A stretch of 64,000 nt of DNA from Corallococcus macrosporus DSM 14697 (GCF_002305895.1 NZ_CP022203.1:8466001-8530000), one strand, 5' to 3'; numbered from the stretch's first letter, positions 3,019 through 9,913 are shown. Numbers and translations are program-made. Notes: generated by a model from the sequence alone, not told the origin.

Positions 3019-4056
3019 ATGGGACACCCCACCCTCGAGAACAAGACGCCCTTCGCCTTCGACATGATGGGCCTCGCCGACGAGGACGGGAGCTCCCTGC
3101 TGCTGCTCGTCGTGAAGGCCACGTATGCCTTCGGGCCCTCCGGACTGAAGCTCGCCGACGAGCAAGTCCCGGTGACGTGGGGCGGTGAGTCCTGGGGCAA
3201 GCCCGGCGAGTCCAGCGACAGATACGAACCCGAGAGCGCCTTCATCAAGTTGGCCACGGACGTGGCGCTGATTGGCCATGCCTACCCGCCCCAGAAGGGC
3301 GCCACCGAGGCGCTGGTTGCGCTCCAGGTCGGGCCGCTGAAGAAGGCCGTGCGCGTCGTGGGTGACCGGACCTGGTTCAAGAGCATGGGCCGTGTCGCGG
3401 CCACCAAACCGCTCCCGTTCGACAAAATCCCGCTCACGTGGGAGCGCGCGTTCGGCGGCTGGGACAAGACAGACGCCGCGAAGCCTGCCTTCGAGCCACG
3501 CAACCCCGTAGGGGTGGGCTTTCGCGCCAGCCCTCGCCACTTCGAGGAGGGCCTGAAGCTGCCCAACCTGGAGGACCCCACCACTGAGCCGCTGCGCGAC
3601 TTCGGCCAGAAGGTGGTGCCCACGGGCTTCGGCTTCACCGCTCCCCACTGGCAGCCACGGGCGAGGTACGGCGGCACCTACGACGACGCCTGGGACAAGA
3701 CGCGCAAGCCCCTGCTGCCCAAGGACTTCGACCGGCGGTTCTTCAACGCCGCCGCGCCGGGGCTCATCGCTCCCGGATACCTGAAGGGAGACGAGCCGGT
3801 CATCATCGCCGGCGCCTCGCCCAAGGGCCGGCTGTCCTTCGCGCTTCCCGGACAGGCCGCTCCGGTCGTCACCGTGGCGCTCGCGGGCGGCGAGGACGCA
3901 ACGCCTCCGATGCATCTGGACACCGTCGCCCTGGACACGGACGCGGAGCAGGTGACGCTCCTCTGGCGTGGGCACGTCACCCTGGGCGAGGGCCTCCATG
4001 ATGTGCGGGGTCTGAAGGTCACCGCCCAGGGCGTGGCCGCGCCCAAGGCTGCCTGA
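3019..4056 (+). CDS. DUF2169 domain protein, probable T6SS effector adaptor
   Basis: This 345-residue soluble protein has the pattern of the DUF2169 family: an N-terminal N-K-T-P-F motif (residues 8-12), a VVKATY strand (32-37), and a central WERAFGGWD segment followed by NPVG. DUF2169 proteins are known in type VI secretion loci as adaptors that load PAAR/DUF4150-linked effectors onto the VgrG spike, as with the Agrobacterium Tde2 module. Here it is the first gene of a same-strand run with a DUF4150 PAAR-like gene 111 bases downstream, then a TIGR02270-like protein, a ketoacyl-synthase-like protein and a nuclease toxin. The ribosome binding site is weak (GAAAAG). Family assignment is firm; the exact cargo is inferred from gene order. 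Confidence 0.85.
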   Translation: MGHPTLENKTPFAFDMMGLADEDGSSLLLLVVKATYAFGPSGLKLADEQVPVTWGGESWGKPGESSDRYEPESAFIKLATDVALIGHAYPPQKGATEALVALQVGPLKKAVRVVGDRTWFKSMGRVAATKPLPFDKIPLTWERAFGGWDKTDAAKPAFEPRNPVGVGFRASPRHFEEGLKLPNLEDPTTEPLRDFGQKVVPTGFGFTAPHWQPRARYGGTYDDAWDKTRKPLLPKDFDRRFFNAAAPGLIAPGYLKGDEPVIIAGASPKGRLSFALPGQAAPVVTVALAGGEDATPPMHLDTVALDTDAEQVTLLWRGHVTLGEGLHDVRGLKVTAQGVAAPKAA

Positions 4057-4167
4057 ACGGGGCCGGCGTAGGGTCATGTATCCGGCGGCGCACCCGGGCT
4101 TCGTAGCGGCCCGGCTCGCTCCCCGTGGCCCCGCCGAGGTAATCTGTCCCCTCTGGAGGTGGCTGGC

Positions 4168-4632
4168 ATGCCTGTCAATACCGGTGTGAACAAGATGTCC
4201 GTGGTGACGAAGGACAGTGGCGGCGTCACCGTGGCCTTCCCGGACGTGTGCAAGACGCCCAGCCCGGCCGGGCCCGTGCCCATCCCCTACCCCAACGTGG
4301 CCCAGTCCTCCGACACCGACAAGGGCACGAAGAAGGTCTCCGTCGCCGGCAACCCGGTGTGCGTCAAGGACTCCAACTTCAAGATGAGCACCGGCGACGA
4401 GGCCGGCACCGCGGGCGGCGGCGTGGTCTCCGGCAAGACGAAGGGCAAGGCCGAGTTCGTCAACTTCTCCTTCGACGTGAAGTTCGAAGGGAAGAACGTG
4501 GCGCGCGCCTTTGACCTGATGCTCCACAACGACAAGAACACGCCGCCATTCCCTGTCATGCAGGGCCCTGTCATCGCCATGGGTGGCAATGAAGGCAAGC
4601 CCAAGTGCCTTGTCTGCGATAAAGAGGTCTGA
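4168..4632 (+). CDS. DUF4150 PAAR-like protein, T6SS spike tip
   Basis: The predicted protein has 154 residues and begins MPVNTGVNKMS. The ATG at 4168 was chosen over the in-frame GTG at 4159 because GGAGG at 4155-4159 sits 8 bases ahead of the ATG. The N-terminal half has the DUF4150 signature: FPDVCKTPSPAGPVPIPYPN, then a G-x-K-V-x-V-x-G-x-P-V-x-V-K-D-S strand run, then MSTGDEAG. Cysteines occur in VCK, PVCVKDS and the C-terminal CLVC, possibly as metal ligands. DUF4150/PAAR-like proteins cap the VgrG spike and link it to an effector. This one has no toxin extension, so the effector must be a separate polypeptide; the AHH nuclease downstream is the obvious candidate. It ends 16 bases before the next gene. 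Confidence 0.88.
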   Translation: MPVNTGVNKMSVVTKDSGGVTVAFPDVCKTPSPAGPVPIPYPNVAQSSDTDKGTKKVSVAGNPVCVKDSNFKMSTGDEAGTAGGGVVSGKTKGKAEFVNFSFDVKFEGKNVARAFDLMLHNDKNTPPFPVMQGPVIAMGGNEGKPKCLVCDKEV

Positions 4633-4648
4633 CCCTCCGAGCGGGACC

Positions 4649-5980
4649 ATGGCCAAACGTGATGGGCGGTTGTTGCGTTGGGATATCTACGAGACGCACC
4701 TCGACGAGGCCGCGTTCCGGTGGAGCCAGTGGGAGCAGTCCCTCGACGCTCCCGATTTCACCCTGACCGATGTCGCGGAGCTGGAGGAGCAGCTCACGGC
4801 CCATCTGGACGGGCTGGTGCTCGGAGGAGCGCCGGTGGCCCAGCGGCTCCTCGAGCCCGCGCTCACGTCTGAAGACCCGGAGCGCATTGTCGCGGCCGCC
4901 CTGGCGCTCCTGGGGAGCGCTGGGCCGGCAGGGCCCTCCGCCCTCCTGGCCTCGCTTCCCGAGGCGGAGGAAGCCGTCCTCACGTCGCTCCAGCGCGCCT
5001 TCGAGCTCCATTGTCCGCCCGACCTCGGCGCAGGATTGTCGTCCCTGCTGAAGCAGGGCGACACCCGCCCCGAGCTCCAGGCGCTCGCCCTGGACACGCT
5101 TGGCGCCCATCGCCTCGCCGATGCGCCGCTGTGCCAGCCATTCGTCGCGCATCCGAATCCCGCTGTCGCCGCCGCGGCGCTGCGAGCCGCCAGCCACAGT
5201 GGGGTTCCGATTGAGCCCACTGCGATTCAACGCGCCCTGGAGTCCAATGCACCGCGGCTTCGGGACGCCGCCATCGTCGCGGGCCTTCGGGCCGGGCACC
5301 GGAGCGCATGGGCCGCCTGCCAGGCCGCCGCGGAGCCCCAAGGACGTGGAGGCCGCCTGCCCCTGCTCGCGCTGGCCCTGAATGGCGACGAGCGGGACAT
5401 GAAGGTCCTGCTGGGGCTGCTCTCCGTGGAGCCGCGCCGGCCCGATGTCCTGTGGGCGCTTGGATTCTCTGGGCGCCTGGCCGCCGCTGAGGCCTGTCTG
5501 GAGTGGATGCGGGACACGTCCACGGCGCCGCTCGCGGGTGAGGCCTTCAGCGCCATCACGGGGCTCCACCTCGAGGGCCCCTTCGTCAGGCCCCCGGAAG
5601 AAGCGGAGGCCGAGGAGCCCGCGCCCATGGAGGACGAGGACCTGGACGCGGACCTCAAGCCGAAGCCCGAGGACGCGCTGCCCATCCCTGACGCGGCGCA
5701 GGTCGCTGCCTGGTGGAAGGAGAACCGCCCCCGGTTCGACGCCAGACAGCGGTACCTCGCCGGCCAGCCCCTGACGCCGCAGACCCTCCTCGACGCGCTC
5801 ACGGCGGCCCCCATGCGCAGGCGGCACGCCCTGGCCCTGGAGCTGGCGTTCCGCAGCCGGGGCGCCATTCACGTGCCGACTCGGCGATGGGTCTCCACGC
5901 AACTCCAGGCCTGGACGGAGGCGCGCTCGGCGCCGGCCTCGTCGTACAGCCGCCCGTTCGCGGAGGGGCTGCGCGGTTAA
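4649..5980 (+). CDS. TIGR02270-like HEAT-repeat protein
   Basis: This 443-residue protein starts at the ATG at 4649 (MAKRDGRLLRWD), 16 bases after the PAAR-like gene. It is built from Ala/Leu-rich helical repeats of HEAT/PBS-lyase type, for example PNPAVAAAALRAASHSG and APRLRDAAIVAGLRAGH, with an acidic Pro/Glu linker around residues 333-355. The family is known as a paralogous group in Myxococcus and also occurs in T6SS gene clusters of other Proteobacteria; no biochemical activity is established. The tight spacing to the PAAR gene suggests a scaffold or chaperone in effector loading, which is inference. Confidence 0.75.
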   Translation: MAKRDGRLLRWDIYETHLDEAAFRWSQWEQSLDAPDFTLTDVAELEEQLTAHLDGLVLGGAPVAQRLLEPALTSEDPERIVAAALALLGSAGPAGPSALLASLPEAEEAVLTSLQRAFELHCPPDLGAGLSSLLKQGDTRPELQALALDTLGAHRLADAPLCQPFVAHPNPAVAAAALRAASHSGVPIEPTAIQRALESNAPRLRDAAIVAGLRAGHRSAWAACQAAAEPQGRGGRLPLLALALNGDERDMKVLLGLLSVEPRRPDVLWALGFSGRLAAAEACLEWMRDTSTAPLAGEAFSAITGLHLEGPFVRPPEEAEAEEPAPMEDEDLDADLKPKPEDALPIPDAAQVAAWWKENRPRFDARQRYLAGQPLTPQTLLDALTAAPMRRRHALALELAFRSRGAIHVPTRRWVSTQLQAWTEARSAPASSYSRPFAEGLRG

Positions 5981-6087
5981 GCAGCGACGACACGCCGGGA
6001 CAAGCCAATGGCCCACGGCCGGGCCTTCCTGGCGCCAAGCTGCAATCACTGGCATGATGGGCTTTCGATCTCGGGGAGGGAAGCCTG

Positions 6088-7224
6088 ATGGCATCTCATC
6101 AAGCAATGCCAGGCACCGTCGCGCTTCGTGCCATGGGCGCGGCAACCTCCCTGGGGGCTGTCGTCCAGGCCGCAGCCGCGGCCCGGGCGGGAGTCAGCCG
6201 GGCCCAGGAACTCTCACAGAGCACGTGCCTTGATGAAGTCACGCACGAGCGTGTCGCGCTCGTGGGACACACGGCGGGGCCCCTGACGGAGGGGTTCGAA
6301 GGAATCGGCAGGCTGGTGCAGCTTGGCGTCGCGGCGCTCGAGGACCTGGATGCATCCGCTCATGGGGCATGGTGGGGACAACTCGATTGCTTTCTGTGTC
6401 TTCCCCGAGGCTTGGGCCTGGGGACGGACCCGCCAAGGGACTCCATGGACGTCGCACGGGCCCTGGCGTCGAGGCTCCAAGCCGAAGCCCGCTTCATCCC
6501 CTCGCTGAAAGCCATGCAGCTCTTCCAGGAAGAACGCGGAGGAACCATTCACGCGCTTGAGGAAGCAATGAAGTCGCTCCAGGCGCGACGGTGCGACCAG
6601 GCCCTGGTGCTGGCTTGCGATTCGCTCGTGTCTCCGGAGCGCCTTGCGGCTCAGCTTGATGAGCGCCGCCTCAAGACACCCGATCATCCGGTTGGATACA
6701 TGCCGGGGGAAGGCGCCGTGGCCTTGCTGCTGGAGCGTCGGGACGCAGCTCGGGAGCGAGCACAGCCCCCAATCGCCTACCTCTTCAAGCCGGCAACAGC
6801 CCAGGAGCCCCACTGTCGTGATGCGAAGGCTCCACCCGTAGGCCGCGCACTGGAGGAGGTGCTCGCGTTGGCCCTTTCGCAGGCAGCGGCCACGTCGCTT
6901 CCCGAGGGAAGCCTCTACCTGGACCTCAACGGAGAGGAATTCCGCGCGCGCGAATGGGGCCAGACGCTGCTTCGGGCGCGGGCTACATGCCGCGTCGATG
7001 AATGGCGGGCTGTCATACCCGCCCTGAGCTTTGGCGAACTGGGGGCCGTATCCCCCCTTGTTTCAGTTTGCCTCGCCACGCGGGCCTTTGCCCGCGGCTA
7101 TGGACGCGGAAGCCATGCATTGATTCTGGTGGCCGGTGATGACGGCCATCGAGCCGGCCTGCTGCTCGAACGAGGCCCCTCGTTCCGGAGTCCGCTGATG
7201 ATGATTGCAGGAGGAGCGCAATGA
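6088..7224 (+). CDS. Ketoacyl-synthase-fold protein lacking catalytic residues (T6SS-associated)
   Basis: The predicted protein has 378 residues behind a strong GGGGAGGG ribosome binding site. Residues about 165-216 match the thiolase-fold core of beta-ketoacyl synthases: a DQALVLACDSLVSPERL segment followed by YMPGEGAVALLLE, equivalent to the G-x-D-S-L and GEGA motifs. The active site is not conserved. No Cys sits at the expected position about 30 residues before the DSL motif, the HGTGT histidine region reads DLNGEE (about 276-281), and the second histidine region reads SFGELGA. No ACP or other fatty acid gene is near. It overlaps the nuclease gene by ATGA at 7221-7224, so translation is probably coupled. 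Similar ketoacyl-synthase-like proteins occur beside PAAR/DUF2169 genes in T6SS effector loci. A structural or chaperone role is the best inference. Confidence 0.75.
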   Translation: MASHQAMPGTVALRAMGAATSLGAVVQAAAAARAGVSRAQELSQSTCLDEVTHERVALVGHTAGPLTEGFEGIGRLVQLGVAALEDLDASAHGAWWGQLDCFLCLPRGLGLGTDPPRDSMDVARALASRLQAEARFIPSLKAMQLFQEERGGTIHALEEAMKSLQARRCDQALVLACDSLVSPERLAAQLDERRLKTPDHPVGYMPGEGAVALLLERRDAARERAQPPIAYLFKPATAQEPHCRDAKAPPVGRALEEVLALALSQAAATSLPEGSLYLDLNGEEFRAREWGQTLLRARATCRVDEWRAVIPALSFGELGAVSPLVSVCLATRAFARGYGRGSHALILVAGDDGHRAGLLLERGPSFRSPLMMIAGGAQ

Positions 7225-7883
7225 GCCTTGCGAAACACATCGCGAAGACGCGCAAGAGGGAAGTCGTCACGGAGCGGGTGAACGGCTTTCAAACCAACTG
7301 CACCACGGGCTTCAAGAGGACAGGATACTGGGAGGCACACCACATCGTGTGTGTATCCTCCGTCGGCAAACGAAAGGTGGACTACCCCAAGTCCCCACCA
7401 GAGCTCGCTGACTACCTGGAAGCCTGCCTGTGGGTGACGCCGTGGGACATCAACGCAGCTCACAACCTCATCGGACTTCCATCGAATCGCCAGTACCGCG
7501 ACTCCAATGGAGAGAGTCCAGAGGACCTTCCTTCCCATCAGGTCGACCACAACACCCGGGGCGGATATACAGAAGAGGTATCAAAGTACCTCATGGAGAA
7601 CGTCTGGTGCTCGCTCACCGAGAAGAAGGAAGTTCATGATGTCGATATCGCAACATTGAAGGCGGAGCTTGAAAGCGCCAGCAGCATGTTCCGTGAACGC
7701 CTGGAGTCGCGAGGTGCGCGAAATGGGGGCACGAAGTTCTGCTGGAAGAACCGACATGAGGAGGGATTCGCACGGAAGTGGTACTACCCCTTCTCGATGG
7801 GAAAGAAGCCCAGCCACCGTTCTCCTGGCGTTTCGTATTCCCTCCTGGATTCCATCTTCAAGAAGATCAAACTACCTTTCTGA
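7221..7883 (+). CDS. AHH-motif HNH/Endo VII-fold nuclease, probable T6SS effector
   Basis: The protein has 220 residues and its start codon overlaps the preceding stop (ATGA). Residues 39-41 are AHH within WEAHHIVCVS, followed by WDINAAHNLIGLPSN (Asn82) and by SHQVDHNTRGGY (His106, His110). This order of AHH, then N-x-I-x-L-P, then H-x3-H is that of the AHH nuclease family of the HNH/Endonuclease VII superfamily, used widely as toxin domains. There is no signal peptide, transmembrane segment or PAAR domain, as expected for cargo loaded by separate adaptor proteins. The base composition is visibly more AT-rich than its neighbours, suggesting transfer. An Imm11-type gene follows 14 bases later, supporting a toxin-immunity pair. 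Predicted target is nucleic acid; DNA versus RNA cannot be told. Confidence 0.8.
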   Translation: MSLAKHIAKTRKREVVTERVNGFQTNCTTGFKRTGYWEAHHIVCVSSVGKRKVDYPKSPPELADYLEACLWVTPWDINAAHNLIGLPSNRQYRDSNGESPEDLPSHQVDHNTRGGYTEEVSKYLMENVWCSLTEKKEVHDVDIATLKAELESASSMFRERLESRGARNGGTKFCWKNRHEEGFARKWYYPFSMGKKPSHRSPGVSYSLLDSIFKKIKLPF

Positions 7884-7897
7884 GGCCTGAGGTGAAC

Positions 7898-8479
7898 GTG
7901 AGCAGCATGCCTGTCGTCTGGGAGTGGGATGTAGGCGAGCGTTTCTGTGTCCTGGATGGCGTCCAGAATGTCCCGAACGAGTATCAGCTCAGCAAGGGCA
8001 TCAGCCGTGCCCTGGGCTTTCCGGCCGATGCGAACTTCGCCATGTCCGCCAGGCACCGGAAGTACGTCGCCCTGGCAGACAACATCAGCAATATGAACCG
8101 GGCGCTGGTCGTCTCCCGCCGGCTGAAGGAAGTGGTCGAGGCGAAGCATCCACGCGATGTCGAGTTCCTCCCTGTTTCGATTCTCGACCACAAGCAGAAG
8201 GTGGCCAGCAGCGATTACTTCATCATCAACCCATTCAAGGTCGTCGACTGCATCGACAAGGACAAATCCAAGTACCGGTGGAACAACATTGATCCGGAAA
8301 AGATGAGTTCCTGCACCAGGCTCGTTCTCAAACCGGATGCAATCGATCCCGAACTGCTCCTGTTCCGGCCCCGGCACCTCGAATACTACGTCCTGGTTCA
8401 TCCAGACCTGGCCGAGGCGCTGGAGGGGGAGGGCTTCACGGGCCTCAGCTTCACGCCGCTCGACGAGTTCGAGTCCTGA
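7898..8479 (+). CDS. Imm11 (DUF1629)-type immunity protein
   Basis: A protein of 193 residues from GTG 7898, 5 bases after GAGG (7889-7892); the ATG at 7907 is an alternative, but its spacing is 14. The features fit the Imm11/DUF1629 family: an N-terminal strand VWEWDVGERF, a central VEFLPVSILDHK, a YFIINPFKVVDCID motif, and a C-terminal LKPDAIDPELLLFRPRHLEY block followed by HPDLAEALEGEGFTGLSF. The same N-P-x-x-x-V-D-C motif is present in the Imm11 paralogue encoded at 9329-9913. Lying directly after the AHH nuclease gene, it most likely protects the producer by binding that toxin in the cytoplasm. Composition is more AT-rich than the chromosome around it. Confidence 0.8.
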   Translation: MSSMPVVWEWDVGERFCVLDGVQNVPNEYQLSKGISRALGFPADANFAMSARHRKYVALADNISNMNRALVVSRRLKEVVEAKHPRDVEFLPVSILDHKQKVASSDYFIINPFKVVDCIDKDKSKYRWNNIDPEKMSSCTRLVLKPDAIDPELLLFRPRHLEYYVLVHPDLAEALEGEGFTGLSFTPLDEFES

Positions 8480-8497
8480 CCCCGGAGACACGTCTCG

Positions 8498-9313
8498 ATG
8501 AGCCTGCATGCCCTGCAACAGCGCATCAAGGAAGAACTCCAGGAGCATCTGGCTGTCATTGCCAACGGCCGCCCCGCGGCGGAGCAGGGGCCCGTCTATG
8601 AGGAGGTGGAGCAGTGCTTCCAGGCGACGGCCTGCTGCGCCTTGCTCGTGGCCGCGGACAGGTCGAACTTCCAGAAGCACCTGTGCTGGGCTGCGCTGGC
8701 TCGAAGGGACTTCCTGCGTCGCAGCCAAGAAGAGGGGACTCCGAGCGACTTTCGCTGCGCCAGGAGCCGGAGCGAGGCCTTCTTCTGCGCGCTGGCCGCG
8801 GGCGACATCGCGCTCGCCATCGAGATCGGCGACCTGTCTCCCGCGACCTGGAGGCCGGATGGGGAGTACAAAGACGACTTCGCGTACCAGTACTTCCTCC
8901 ATCAGCACCTGAAGCGCGCGGAGCCAGGATATCGAGAGGCCGTTCTCCAGCAGCTTGAGGAAGCCGTCCCAGGAGCCGACCCCAGCCGCTTCGACGTGTG
9001 CCGTGCGCTGCACCAGGGAGCTCGAGAGGCGTTCGAGTCGGCCCTGGAGGCGCTCATCGACCGGCACAGCCTGGAAATGGACGGCTTGCGGCCACAATCA
9101 GGGGATGTCCCGACATTTGAACCACGAAGCCGCGTCTTCATTGAAGGGCTGGCACTGCTCCGCATCGCGAGCGAAATGGGACTTCACTCCGAAGCCCGCA
9201 CCTATCGGCTATGCCCATGGACGGTGCGCGAGGGCGCCTTGGAGACCAGACCGGACGACATCTTCGCGGAGATGGCGCACCTGAGTGGACGGCGCCGGTC
9301 CTCCGCCCGCTGA
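8498..9313 (+). CDS. All-helical Imm49-like protein, possible second immunity factor
   Basis: This 271-residue cytoplasmic protein starts at ATG 8498, with GGAG at 8484-8487. It is mostly alpha-helical with a central RSRSEAFFCALAAGDIALA segment and a later EGLALLRIASEMGL helix. The layout resembles immunity proteins grouped as Imm49 in polymorphic toxin loci, but I cannot confirm that by alignment. It lies 18 bases after the Imm11 gene in the same direction, so it is in the same operon as the nuclease. It could be a second immunity protein for a toxin no longer present, or an accessory of this effector. The coding call is strong; function is uncertain. Confidence 0.6.
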   Translation: MSLHALQQRIKEELQEHLAVIANGRPAAEQGPVYEEVEQCFQATACCALLVAADRSNFQKHLCWAALARRDFLRRSQEEGTPSDFRCARSRSEAFFCALAAGDIALAIEIGDLSPATWRPDGEYKDDFAYQYFLHQHLKRAEPGYREAVLQQLEEAVPGADPSRFDVCRALHQGAREAFESALEALIDRHSLEMDGLRPQSGDVPTFEPRSRVFIEGLALLRIASEMGLHSEARTYRLCPWTVREGALETRPDDIFAEMAHLSGRRRSSAR

Positions 9314-9328
9314 GGTACCTCTCCGGCC

Positions 9329-9913
9329 TCATCGTTGACCAGACTGCGCCAACTCCGTCACCAGGATATTGGTGGGGTCCGATGCTTCGAGTGCGTCTAC
9401 CATGCGTTCACTGATTACGTATCTCTGCGCGTCCCGCTCAATGCGGAAAAGGTCCGGCGCGTGCCTCAGTTTCCGTGGGTCCAGCACTCGCTCTTCAATC
9501 CGCACGATGTCCCGCCCCAGGTATTCAATCTGGCTCTCAGTGAAGTCCAAGCAGTCGACCGCGCCAACCGGGTTGACGAACCCATAGTCGCGAGAGTGAA
9601 TGCGGCCCTTGTGGTTATAGAGGGTAAAGGGCAGGTATTCGATCTCCACTCCCGGACAAAGCCGCGCAAATATTTCGCGAGTCTTCGCATCGACAAGCAG
9701 GAAGCGCTTGATGTTGCCAATCAGCGAGCCAGTAACGATGCCTGGATAAGCATCGCTCATTTGGAGCTTGGCATTCTCTGGGAAGAATGGGGCAGCTTTC
9801 TTACCCACGGACAGGTAATAGCTCTCCAGCCCCATGCCTTCCGGCTCACTGTCGATCAGGCAGAGCGAACTGTCGTTGATGTCACCCAAGGTCTCGATCA
9901 AGAAGTAGTTCAT
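9329..9913 (-). CDS. Imm11 (DUF1629)-type immunity protein, orphan on opposite strand
   Basis: The predicted protein has 194 residues with AGGAGA about 10 bases before the ATG. Imm11 features are: MNYFLIETLGD at the N terminus, a central IEYLPFTLYNHKGR, VNPVGAVDCLDF (same place as NPFKVVDCID in the 7898 gene), and DPRKLRHAPDLFRIERDAQRY followed by an ISERMVDALEA helix. No toxin gene is next to it: its downstream neighbour on the other strand ends only 15 bases away and upstream lies the CinA gene. Its AT-rich composition relative to the flanks argues for acquisition together with the effector island. It may be a spare immunity gene against toxins of competitors. Confidence 0.8.
   Translation of the reverse strand: MNYFLIETLGDINDSSLCLIDSEPEGMGLESYYLSVGKKAAPFFPENAKLQMSDAYPGIVTGSLIGNIKRFLLVDAKTREIFARLCPGVEIEYLPFTLYNHKGRIHSRDYGFVNPVGAVDCLDFTESQIEYLGRDIVRIEERVLDPRKLRHAPDLFRIERDAQRYVISERMVDALEASDPTNILVTELAQSGQR

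What the first reader, a model, noticed from the sequence alone, without database searches (positions are those of the whole stretch)
3019..9313. T6SS-type effector island built from DUF2169, PAAR-like, HEAT-like and inactive ketoacyl-synthase-like proteins delivering an AHH nuclease
Six or seven same-strand genes combine a DUF2169 adaptor, a DUF4150 tip, a TIGR02270-like protein, a ketoacyl-synthase-fold protein and an AHH nuclease with Imm11 immunity. The nuclease has no PAAR or signal of its own, so its loading must depend on the other proteins. The nuclease end is AT-richer than the front end, as if the toxin-immunity cassette is swappable cargo on a conserved delivery chassis. No VgrG or Hcp is in the window.
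Basis: partly seen in the sequence, partly recalled or inferred. Interest (0 to 1): 0.75.

Follow-up and report, generated by a model that had tools for sequence, protein, structure and literature searches.

The report
Swappable T6SS nuclease effector island
This is one of about nine related toxin islands in a Myxococcus genome, in which a DNA-cutting toxin, its antidote and two helper proteins are exchanged as a block beside a conserved set of tip-loading proteins of the type VI secretion harpoon; the kind is already known from kin discrimination in Myxococcus xanthus, but which helpers travel with the toxin was not described in the papers I could search.

Summary
In detail: seven same-strand genes (3019-9313) encode DUF2169, a stand-alone DUF4150/PIPY tip, TIGR02270 (HEAT), a catalytically dead ketoacyl-synthase-like protein (KS, PRK06147-type), an AHH nuclease, Imm11 and an Imm49-family protein; an eighth gene, missed, is an orphan Imm11 on the other strand (9329-9913). 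The genome has a T6SS and eight other KS-AHH-Imm11-Imm49 clusters. So this is a new member of a known kind: the T6SS AHH/Imm11 kin-discrimination systems of M. xanthus, on a chassis resembling Tvp class II / DUF2169 synteny type A. The swappable-cargo idea is confirmed, but the boundary moves. At the same chromosomal site in other myxobacteria DUF2169 and PIPY stay (78-98% identity) while KS, toxin, Imm11 and Imm49-like are replaced together (KS about 34%; toxin unalignable), sometimes inverted. Across 83 toxins, KS lies within 4 kb of 80 and Imm49-like of 77; quartets also occur without local PIPY or DUF2169. Eight natural PIPY-AHH fusions keep only Imm11. Inference: KS, and perhaps the Imm49-like protein, load the detached nuclease onto the tip; Imm11 is the immunity. 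HEAT and KS are one polypeptide in 12 loci. Secretion and binding are untested.

The parts
3019..4056 (+). DUF2169 (TvpA-type) chaperone of the PIPY tip; conserved chassis
   Evidence: PF09937 313.5 bits, E 1.9e-93; 78-92% identical at the same site in L073-L075, L079, L114
4168..4632 (+). stand-alone PIPY/DUF4150 PAAR-like tip protein (154 aa, PIPY motif); conserved chassis
   Evidence: PF13665 144.6 bits; 82-98% identical at the same site
4649..5980 (+). TIGR02270 HEAT/armadillo-type protein; fused to KS in 12 other loci
   Evidence: TIGR02270 323 bits, cut-off 206.8; fusions
6088..7224 (+). PRK06147-like ketoacyl-synthase-fold protein without the catalytic triad; proposed loading adaptor that travels with the toxin
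   Evidence: PF00109 25.1 bits, PRK06147 1e-39; no Cys at the nucleophile column in 34 of 34
7221..7883 (+). AHH (HNH/EndoVII) nuclease toxin, 220 aa, no PIPY or other delivery domain found
   Evidence: PF14412 27.2 bits; motif EAHHIV
7892..8479 (+). Imm11 cognate immunity protein (start 7892 GTG or 7907 ATG)
   Evidence: PF07791 62 bits
8498..9313 (+). Imm49-family all-helical protein, constant partner of detached AHH toxins; accessory factor or second immunity
   Evidence: PF15575 46.2 bits; model pLDDT 93.6; within 4 kb of 77 of 83 toxins
9329..9913 (-). orphan Imm11, probably left by a displaced cassette
   Evidence: PF07791 35.9 bits; 72% to a toxin-linked Imm11 in L096, 44-47% to cassette Imm11s at the same site in L079

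Best explanation
A T6SS antibacterial or kin-discrimination island in two modules. Chassis: DUF2169 holds the PIPY tip protein ready for mounting on VgrG, with a TIGR02270 HEAT protein; a DUF6484 (TvpC) protein, present in sister clusters but not here, may act in trans. Cargo cassette: a dead ketoacyl-synthase-fold protein, a detached AHH nuclease, its Imm11 immunity protein and an Imm49-family helical protein, inherited and exchanged as one block. The KS-fold protein (physically linked to the HEAT protein in 12 loci) bridges the PIPY/DUF2169 complex and the nuclease so that a toxin without any tip domain rides on the spike; Imm11 protects the producer. The Imm49-like protein is more likely a handling or loading factor for the detached toxin than a second immunity protein. 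Shown: gene content, cassette exchange, co-divergence, fusions, loss of KS catalytic residues, a T6SS in the genome. Inferred: secretion, binding partners, nuclease activity, and the roles of KS and the Imm49-like protein.
For: Eleven T6SS core proteins recognised (TssJ, K, L, M, B, C, Hcp, E, F, G, H) plus two full VgrGs. Nine KS-AHH-Imm11-Imm49 clusters in the genome. Same-site exchange with conserved flanks. Of 83 toxins: Imm11 within 4 kb of 82, KS of 80, Imm49-like of 77. Pairs of loci with toxins over 60% identical among pairs whose partner is over 60% identical, myxobacterial loci: Imm11 57/59, Imm49 52/54, KS 45/49, TIGR02270 39/73, DUF6484 21/80, DUF2169 25/159, PIPY 60/2145. TIGR02270-KS fusions in 12 loci. 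PIPY-AHH fusions with Imm11 and no KS, HEAT, DUF2169 or Imm49-like gene within about 5 kb in 8 loci. Imm49 within 8 kb of 27/49 stand-alone PIPYs but 0/39 fused ones, p=2e-9. Literature: in M. xanthus four AHH toxins with single-domain PAARs and Imm11-type immunity mediate T6SS kin discrimination and each PAAR is needed for its own toxin (PMC12077131, PMC12077181); DUF2169 chaperones PIPY (PMC11883445); PRK06147 = TvpD, predicted co-chaperone (PMC13373197).
Against: No interaction or secretion was tested. The window cluster lacks DUF6484 and VgrG. KS proteins also accompany PIPY-toxin fusions, so their basic task may be chaperoning PIPY (TvpD) rather than binding toxin. KS and toxin both evolve fast, so part of the co-divergence reflects rate; the same-site comparisons do not suffer from this. 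Two own-genome quartets and the ten checked in relatives have no local PIPY, so loading in trans must be assumed for them, although M. xanthus data say each PAAR serves its own toxin.
Confidence: 0.7

Rival explanations
1. The Imm49-like protein is a second immunity protein against this AHH subfamily and has nothing to do with loading.
For: Pfam names the family an immunity family; it co-diverges with toxin (rho 0.57) about as tightly as Imm11 does (rho 0.63); it lies next to Imm11; polymorphic-toxin loci can carry several immunity genes (PMC3482391).
Against: PIPY-AHH fusions have Imm11 but no Imm49-like gene in 8 of 8 loci; PMC3482391 links Imm49 to REase-1/REase-6 toxins, not AHH. The fused AHH domains form a separate subfamily, so this is not decisive.
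Confidence: 0.35
2. KS serves only the PIPY tip, as TvpD co-chaperone, and the toxin reaches the spike by binding PIPY or VgrG directly; KS moves with the toxin only by linkage.
For: KS accompanies PIPY-toxin fusions (L043, L047-L050); TvpD is predicted to touch the PAAR domain (PMC13373197).
Against: KS is replaced when PIPY and DUF2169 are kept; quartets keep KS where PIPY is absent; similar KS predicts similar toxin in 45/49 pairs.
Confidence: 0.25
3. The nuclease is exported by outer-membrane exchange as a SitA-type toxin, not by T6SS.
For: SitA5 toxins are also AHH with Imm11 (PMC12077181).
Against: No lipoprotein signal is visible at the AHH N-terminus (MSLAKHIAKTRKREV) and it sits with a PIPY/DUF2169 set; PMC12077181 puts the T6SS and OME toxins in distinct clades.
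Confidence: 0.04

Closest known systems
M. xanthus DK1622 Toxin-Imm1-4 (MXAN_0050/MXAN_0049 and homologs), T6SS kin discrimination
   Same: AHH nuclease, Imm11 family immunity downstream, single-domain PAAR in the same cluster, several homologous clusters per genome, one T6SS locus
   Different: different alleles; DUF2169, ketoacyl and TIGR02270 are not mentioned in the main text of PMC12077131
Tvp class II / DUF2169 synteny type A (P. aeruginosa vgrG1b-Tse7, P. mirabilis pef)
   Same: DUF2169-only TvpA, PIPY domain, PRK06147-like KS (TvpD); Sachar et al. also list an armadillo-like protein
   Different: tip and toxin are separate proteins, no linked vgrG or DUF6484, plus an Imm49-like gene; KS is below the PRK06147 cut-off
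PIPY-AHH fused effectors (L041, L150-L156)
   Same: PIPY tip, AHH domain, Imm11 immunity
   Different: covalent fusion, no accessory genes within about 5 kb

Membership tests
T6SS AHH/Imm11 kin-discrimination systems (M. xanthus Toxin-Imm type) | AHH nuclease gene followed by an Imm11 gene | tested here: met
   AHH 27.2 bits over 22.3; Imm11 62 bits over 22.1
T6SS AHH/Imm11 kin-discrimination systems (M. xanthus Toxin-Imm type) | single-domain PAAR-type gene in the cluster | tested here: met
   154-aa PIPY protein, 144.6 bits
T6SS AHH/Imm11 kin-discrimination systems (M. xanthus Toxin-Imm type) | T6SS in the genome | tested here: met
   TssB,C,E,F,G,H,J,K,L,M, Hcp and VgrG found; TssA not identified
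T6SS AHH/Imm11 kin-discrimination systems (M. xanthus Toxin-Imm type) | T6SS-dependent delivery and self/nonself boundary | not testable with these tools
   needs deletion mutants and colony-boundary assays
Tvp class II accessory system | DUF2169 protein without pentapeptide repeats (TvpA) next to a DUF4150/PIPY protein | tested here: met
Tvp class II accessory system | TvpD (PRK06147) protein | tested here: inconclusive
   PRK06147 E 1e-39 over nearly full length, but 136.7 bits against a cut-off of 342
Tvp class II accessory system | DUF6484 (TvpC) gene in the cluster | tested here: not met
   none in the window cluster; present at four other places in the genome and in sister clusters L045, L051. 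Hence 'class II-like', not filed as a member
Tvp class II accessory system | linked vgrG | tested here: not met
   the two full VgrGs lie at 5.91 and 6.75 Mb, the window at 8.47 Mb
Active ketoacyl synthase | Cys-His-His triad | tested here: not met
   no Cys at the nucleophile column in 34 of 34 aligned proteins; the two His positions are mostly Asn and Glu/Asp

The most novel reading that the evidence does not exclude
The KS-fold pseudoenzyme and the Imm49-family protein form a dedicated, toxin-specific loading adaptor that moves with the toxin and lets a nuclease with no tip domain dock non-covalently on a PIPY tip, in some genomes on a tip encoded elsewhere; Imm49 would then be, in this setting, a loading factor misnamed as an immunity protein.
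Probability: 0.4. Interest if true: 0.62.

Novelty: new member of a known kind. Interest (0 to 1): 0.45.

Why it matters
How T6SS toxins without a tip domain are loaded when tip chaperones are present is open, and the roles of the thiolase-like and armadillo-like genes of DUF2169 synteny type A are stated as unknown (PMC11883445). The natural allele swaps at one chromosomal site, the HEAT-KS fusions and the fused-versus-detached AHH contrast say which proteins follow the toxin, and give direct tests in M. xanthus, where clusters of this kind already have boundary phenotypes.

Tried and rejected
Phage-defence reading: PADLOC gave no convincing hit. Sequence search of solved structures with the Imm49-like alignment: nothing convincing. 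Fold search with its model: no Foldseek match at E <= 0.001; the best second-look matches are helical-repeat scaffolds (RapF Z 10.0, rmsd 4.7, 192 aligned), within the range that helical models reach by chance, so no function was drawn from it. HEAT-KS fusion model: pLDDT 78.6, pTM 0.75; the top matches are ketosynthase/chain-length-factor chains (6kxe_B, 1tqy_B), which supports the fold but not a specific interface. The idea that similar PIPYs are interchangeable within one genome was dropped because M. xanthus PAAR deletions affect only the associated toxin (PMC12077131). The first simple gene caller missed KS and AHH and was replaced. Liu 2020 on PRK06147 as adaptor and Liu 2021 on M. xanthus PAARs were not held.

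Full report
OBSERVATION. An eighth gene, an Imm11 on the minus strand (9329-9913), was missed. GC falls from 69-72% (DUF2169, TIGR02270) to 66% (KS) and 56-59% (AHH, Imm11). The NCBIfam PRK06147 model matches the KS-like protein at 1e-39, but below its cut-off.

GENOME CONTEXT. The window lies at 8.466-8.530 Mb of a single 8,973,512-base contig of a Myxococcus-type genome (close relatives are Myxococcus and Pyxidicoccus). A T6SS locus at 5.91-5.94 Mb encodes VgrG, TssJ, K, L, M, B, C, Hcp, E, F, G and H, and a second vgrG stands at 6.75 Mb. The genome holds 8 DUF2169, 13 PIPY, 12 substantial TIGR02270 and 14 KS-like matches, and 10 Imm49-like genes, 9 found by Pfam and one more by phmmer. Nine clusters hold KS, an AHH-type toxin, Imm11 and an Imm49-like gene: the window, L039, L040, L042, L044, L045, L046, L051, L052. 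All 10 Imm49-like genes are in these clusters. L040 and L044 lack PIPY, DUF2169 and TIGR02270 in the stretch fetched. Six further PIPYs are fused to C-terminal toxins (L041, L043, L047-L050).

SAME-SITE EXCHANGE. Seventy-seven PIPY loci were fetched from public genomes. Five contain the flanks of the window cluster, the upstream 208-aa protein and CinA, on both sides. In L075 (M. vastator) the whole cluster is orthologous (80-98%). In L073 (Myxococcus sp. CA023), L074 (M. xanthus AM003), L079 (Pyxidicoccus caerfyrddinensis) and L114 (a record labelled Comamonas) DUF2169 is 78-91% and PIPY 82-98% identical, whereas KS is 34-35%, the best Imm11 match 30-32%, Imm49-like 29-36%, and the toxin gives no alignment (the orphan Imm11b matches cassette Imm11s at up to 46%). 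TIGR02270 follows either side: 40% where it is fused to KS (L073), 44% in L114, 65-68% in L079 and L074. In L074 and L079 the replacing block is inverted and sits before DUF2169. The exchange boundary is therefore upstream of KS, not downstream as proposed. The orphan Imm11 of the window is 72% identical to a toxin-linked Imm11 in L096 and 44-47% to the cassette Imm11s at this same site in L079, as expected for a relic of a displaced cassette that may still give cross-protection; PMC12077181 reports protection at 46% identity for this family.

CASSETTE STATISTICS. With profiles built from this genome's proteins, 83 toxin-like frames were found in own and fetched loci: Imm11 within 4 kb of 82, KS of 80, Imm49-like of 77, DUF2169 of 33. 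PIPY presence is biased by how the loci were chosen; KS and Imm49-like are not. Distance correlations in myxobacterial loci: toxin with Imm11 0.63, Imm49 0.57, KS 0.47, TIGR02270 0.22, DUF2169 0.14, PIPY 0.10; chassis members correlate among themselves (PIPY-DUF2169 0.70, TIGR02270-DUF2169 0.61) (whole set). Rates differ among the families, so the same-site comparison is the stronger evidence. Ten Imm49-like genes of relatives that lie away from any PIPY were checked: 9 have Imm11, 8 a toxin and 8 KS beside them, two stretches being cut by contig ends.

FUSIONS. TIGR02270 and KS form a single open frame in 12 loci, including L046 of this genome. PIPY and an AHH domain form a single protein in L041 (AHH 37.3 bits) and in seven stretches from relatives (L150-L156; AHH recognised by the homologous C-terminus with its AHHLICLEAL motif); each has Imm11 next to it and no KS, TIGR02270, DUF2169 or Imm49-like gene within about 5 kb. 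Among the genomes of the genus that were searched, Imm49 matches lie within 8 kb of 27 of 49 stand-alone PIPYs and 0 of 39 fused ones (p=2e-9; fused and stand-alone were told apart by bit score and frame length, an approximation). Most fused PIPYs carry non-AHH toxins, so the 8 PIPY-AHH fusions are the relevant contrast.

KS AND IMM49-LIKE. In 34 aligned KS-like proteins no Cys occupies the nucleophile column; the two His positions are mostly Asn and Glu/Asp, and DxNGE and GE/GD motifs are conserved in their place. The fold is a thiolase fold, with chain-length-factor chains on top of the list. The Imm49-like protein is predicted with high confidence (pLDDT 93.6, pTM 0.91) as all-helical, without a clear structural match.

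LITERATURE. DUF2169 is a chaperone of PIPY tips; thiolase-like, armadillo-like and DUF6484 genes accompany it in synteny type A, with roles unknown (PMC11883445). PMC13373197 names DUF2169 TvpA, DUF6484 TvpC and PRK06147 TvpD (class II). In M. xanthus, AHH toxins with Imm11-family immunity and single-domain PAARs act in T6SS-dependent kin discrimination, each PAAR exclusively for its toxin (PMC12077131, PMC12077181). The held library returned no paper with TIGR02270, and only three with two or more of Imm49, Imm11 and AHH.

VERDICT. A new member of a known kind. What the data add is the assignment of KS and the Imm49-like protein to the mobile cargo cassette, a test system of natural swaps and fusions, and a specific loading hypothesis that remains to be tested.

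Noticed in passing
window 9329-9913 (-): Orphan Imm11 on the opposite strand, kept at the same place in M. vastator (86%); looks like a relic of a displaced cassette that could give cross-protection.
   Followed up: partly
L056:5536-7203 (-), genome about 145.5-147.2 kb: A 555-aa protein with both a VipA-like (TssB) and a VipB-like (TssC) match, as if a divergent fused contractile-sheath protein; its role was not examined.
   Followed up: no
L043:5056-7871: The PIPY-fused toxin at about 975-977 kb seems interrupted: the C-terminal remainder (5056-5391) is separated from the PIPY part (6906-7871) by a 366-aa transposase-like gene on the other strand (no Pfam match).
   Followed up: partly
L050:7252-8700: PIPY fused to a C-terminal part with an HEFGH motif, which suggests a zinc metallopeptidase effector; no Pfam match for that part.
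   Followed up: no
L046:10695-13214 (-) and 11 other loci: Natural HEAT (TIGR02270)-KS fusion proteins of 840-890 aa.
   Followed up: yes
L039:7425-10551 (-): Four imm11-like genes with two near-identical 118-119-aa genes of unknown family between them, an expanded immunity array.
   Followed up: no
L114, L103, L126, L135 (BNCN01 records): Genome labelled Comamonas sp. KCTC 72670 carries this Myxococcus site with 78-90% identical flanks; the label is probably wrong or the assembly contaminated.
   Followed up: no
L119, L124, L128-L132, L134, L136, L138-L140, L145, L147-L149: Similar PIPY clusters, most with the quartet, in Hahella, Paraglaciecola, Planctomycetota, Acidobacteria and other bacteria, often with DUF6484; suggests wide horizontal spread.
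   Followed up: partly
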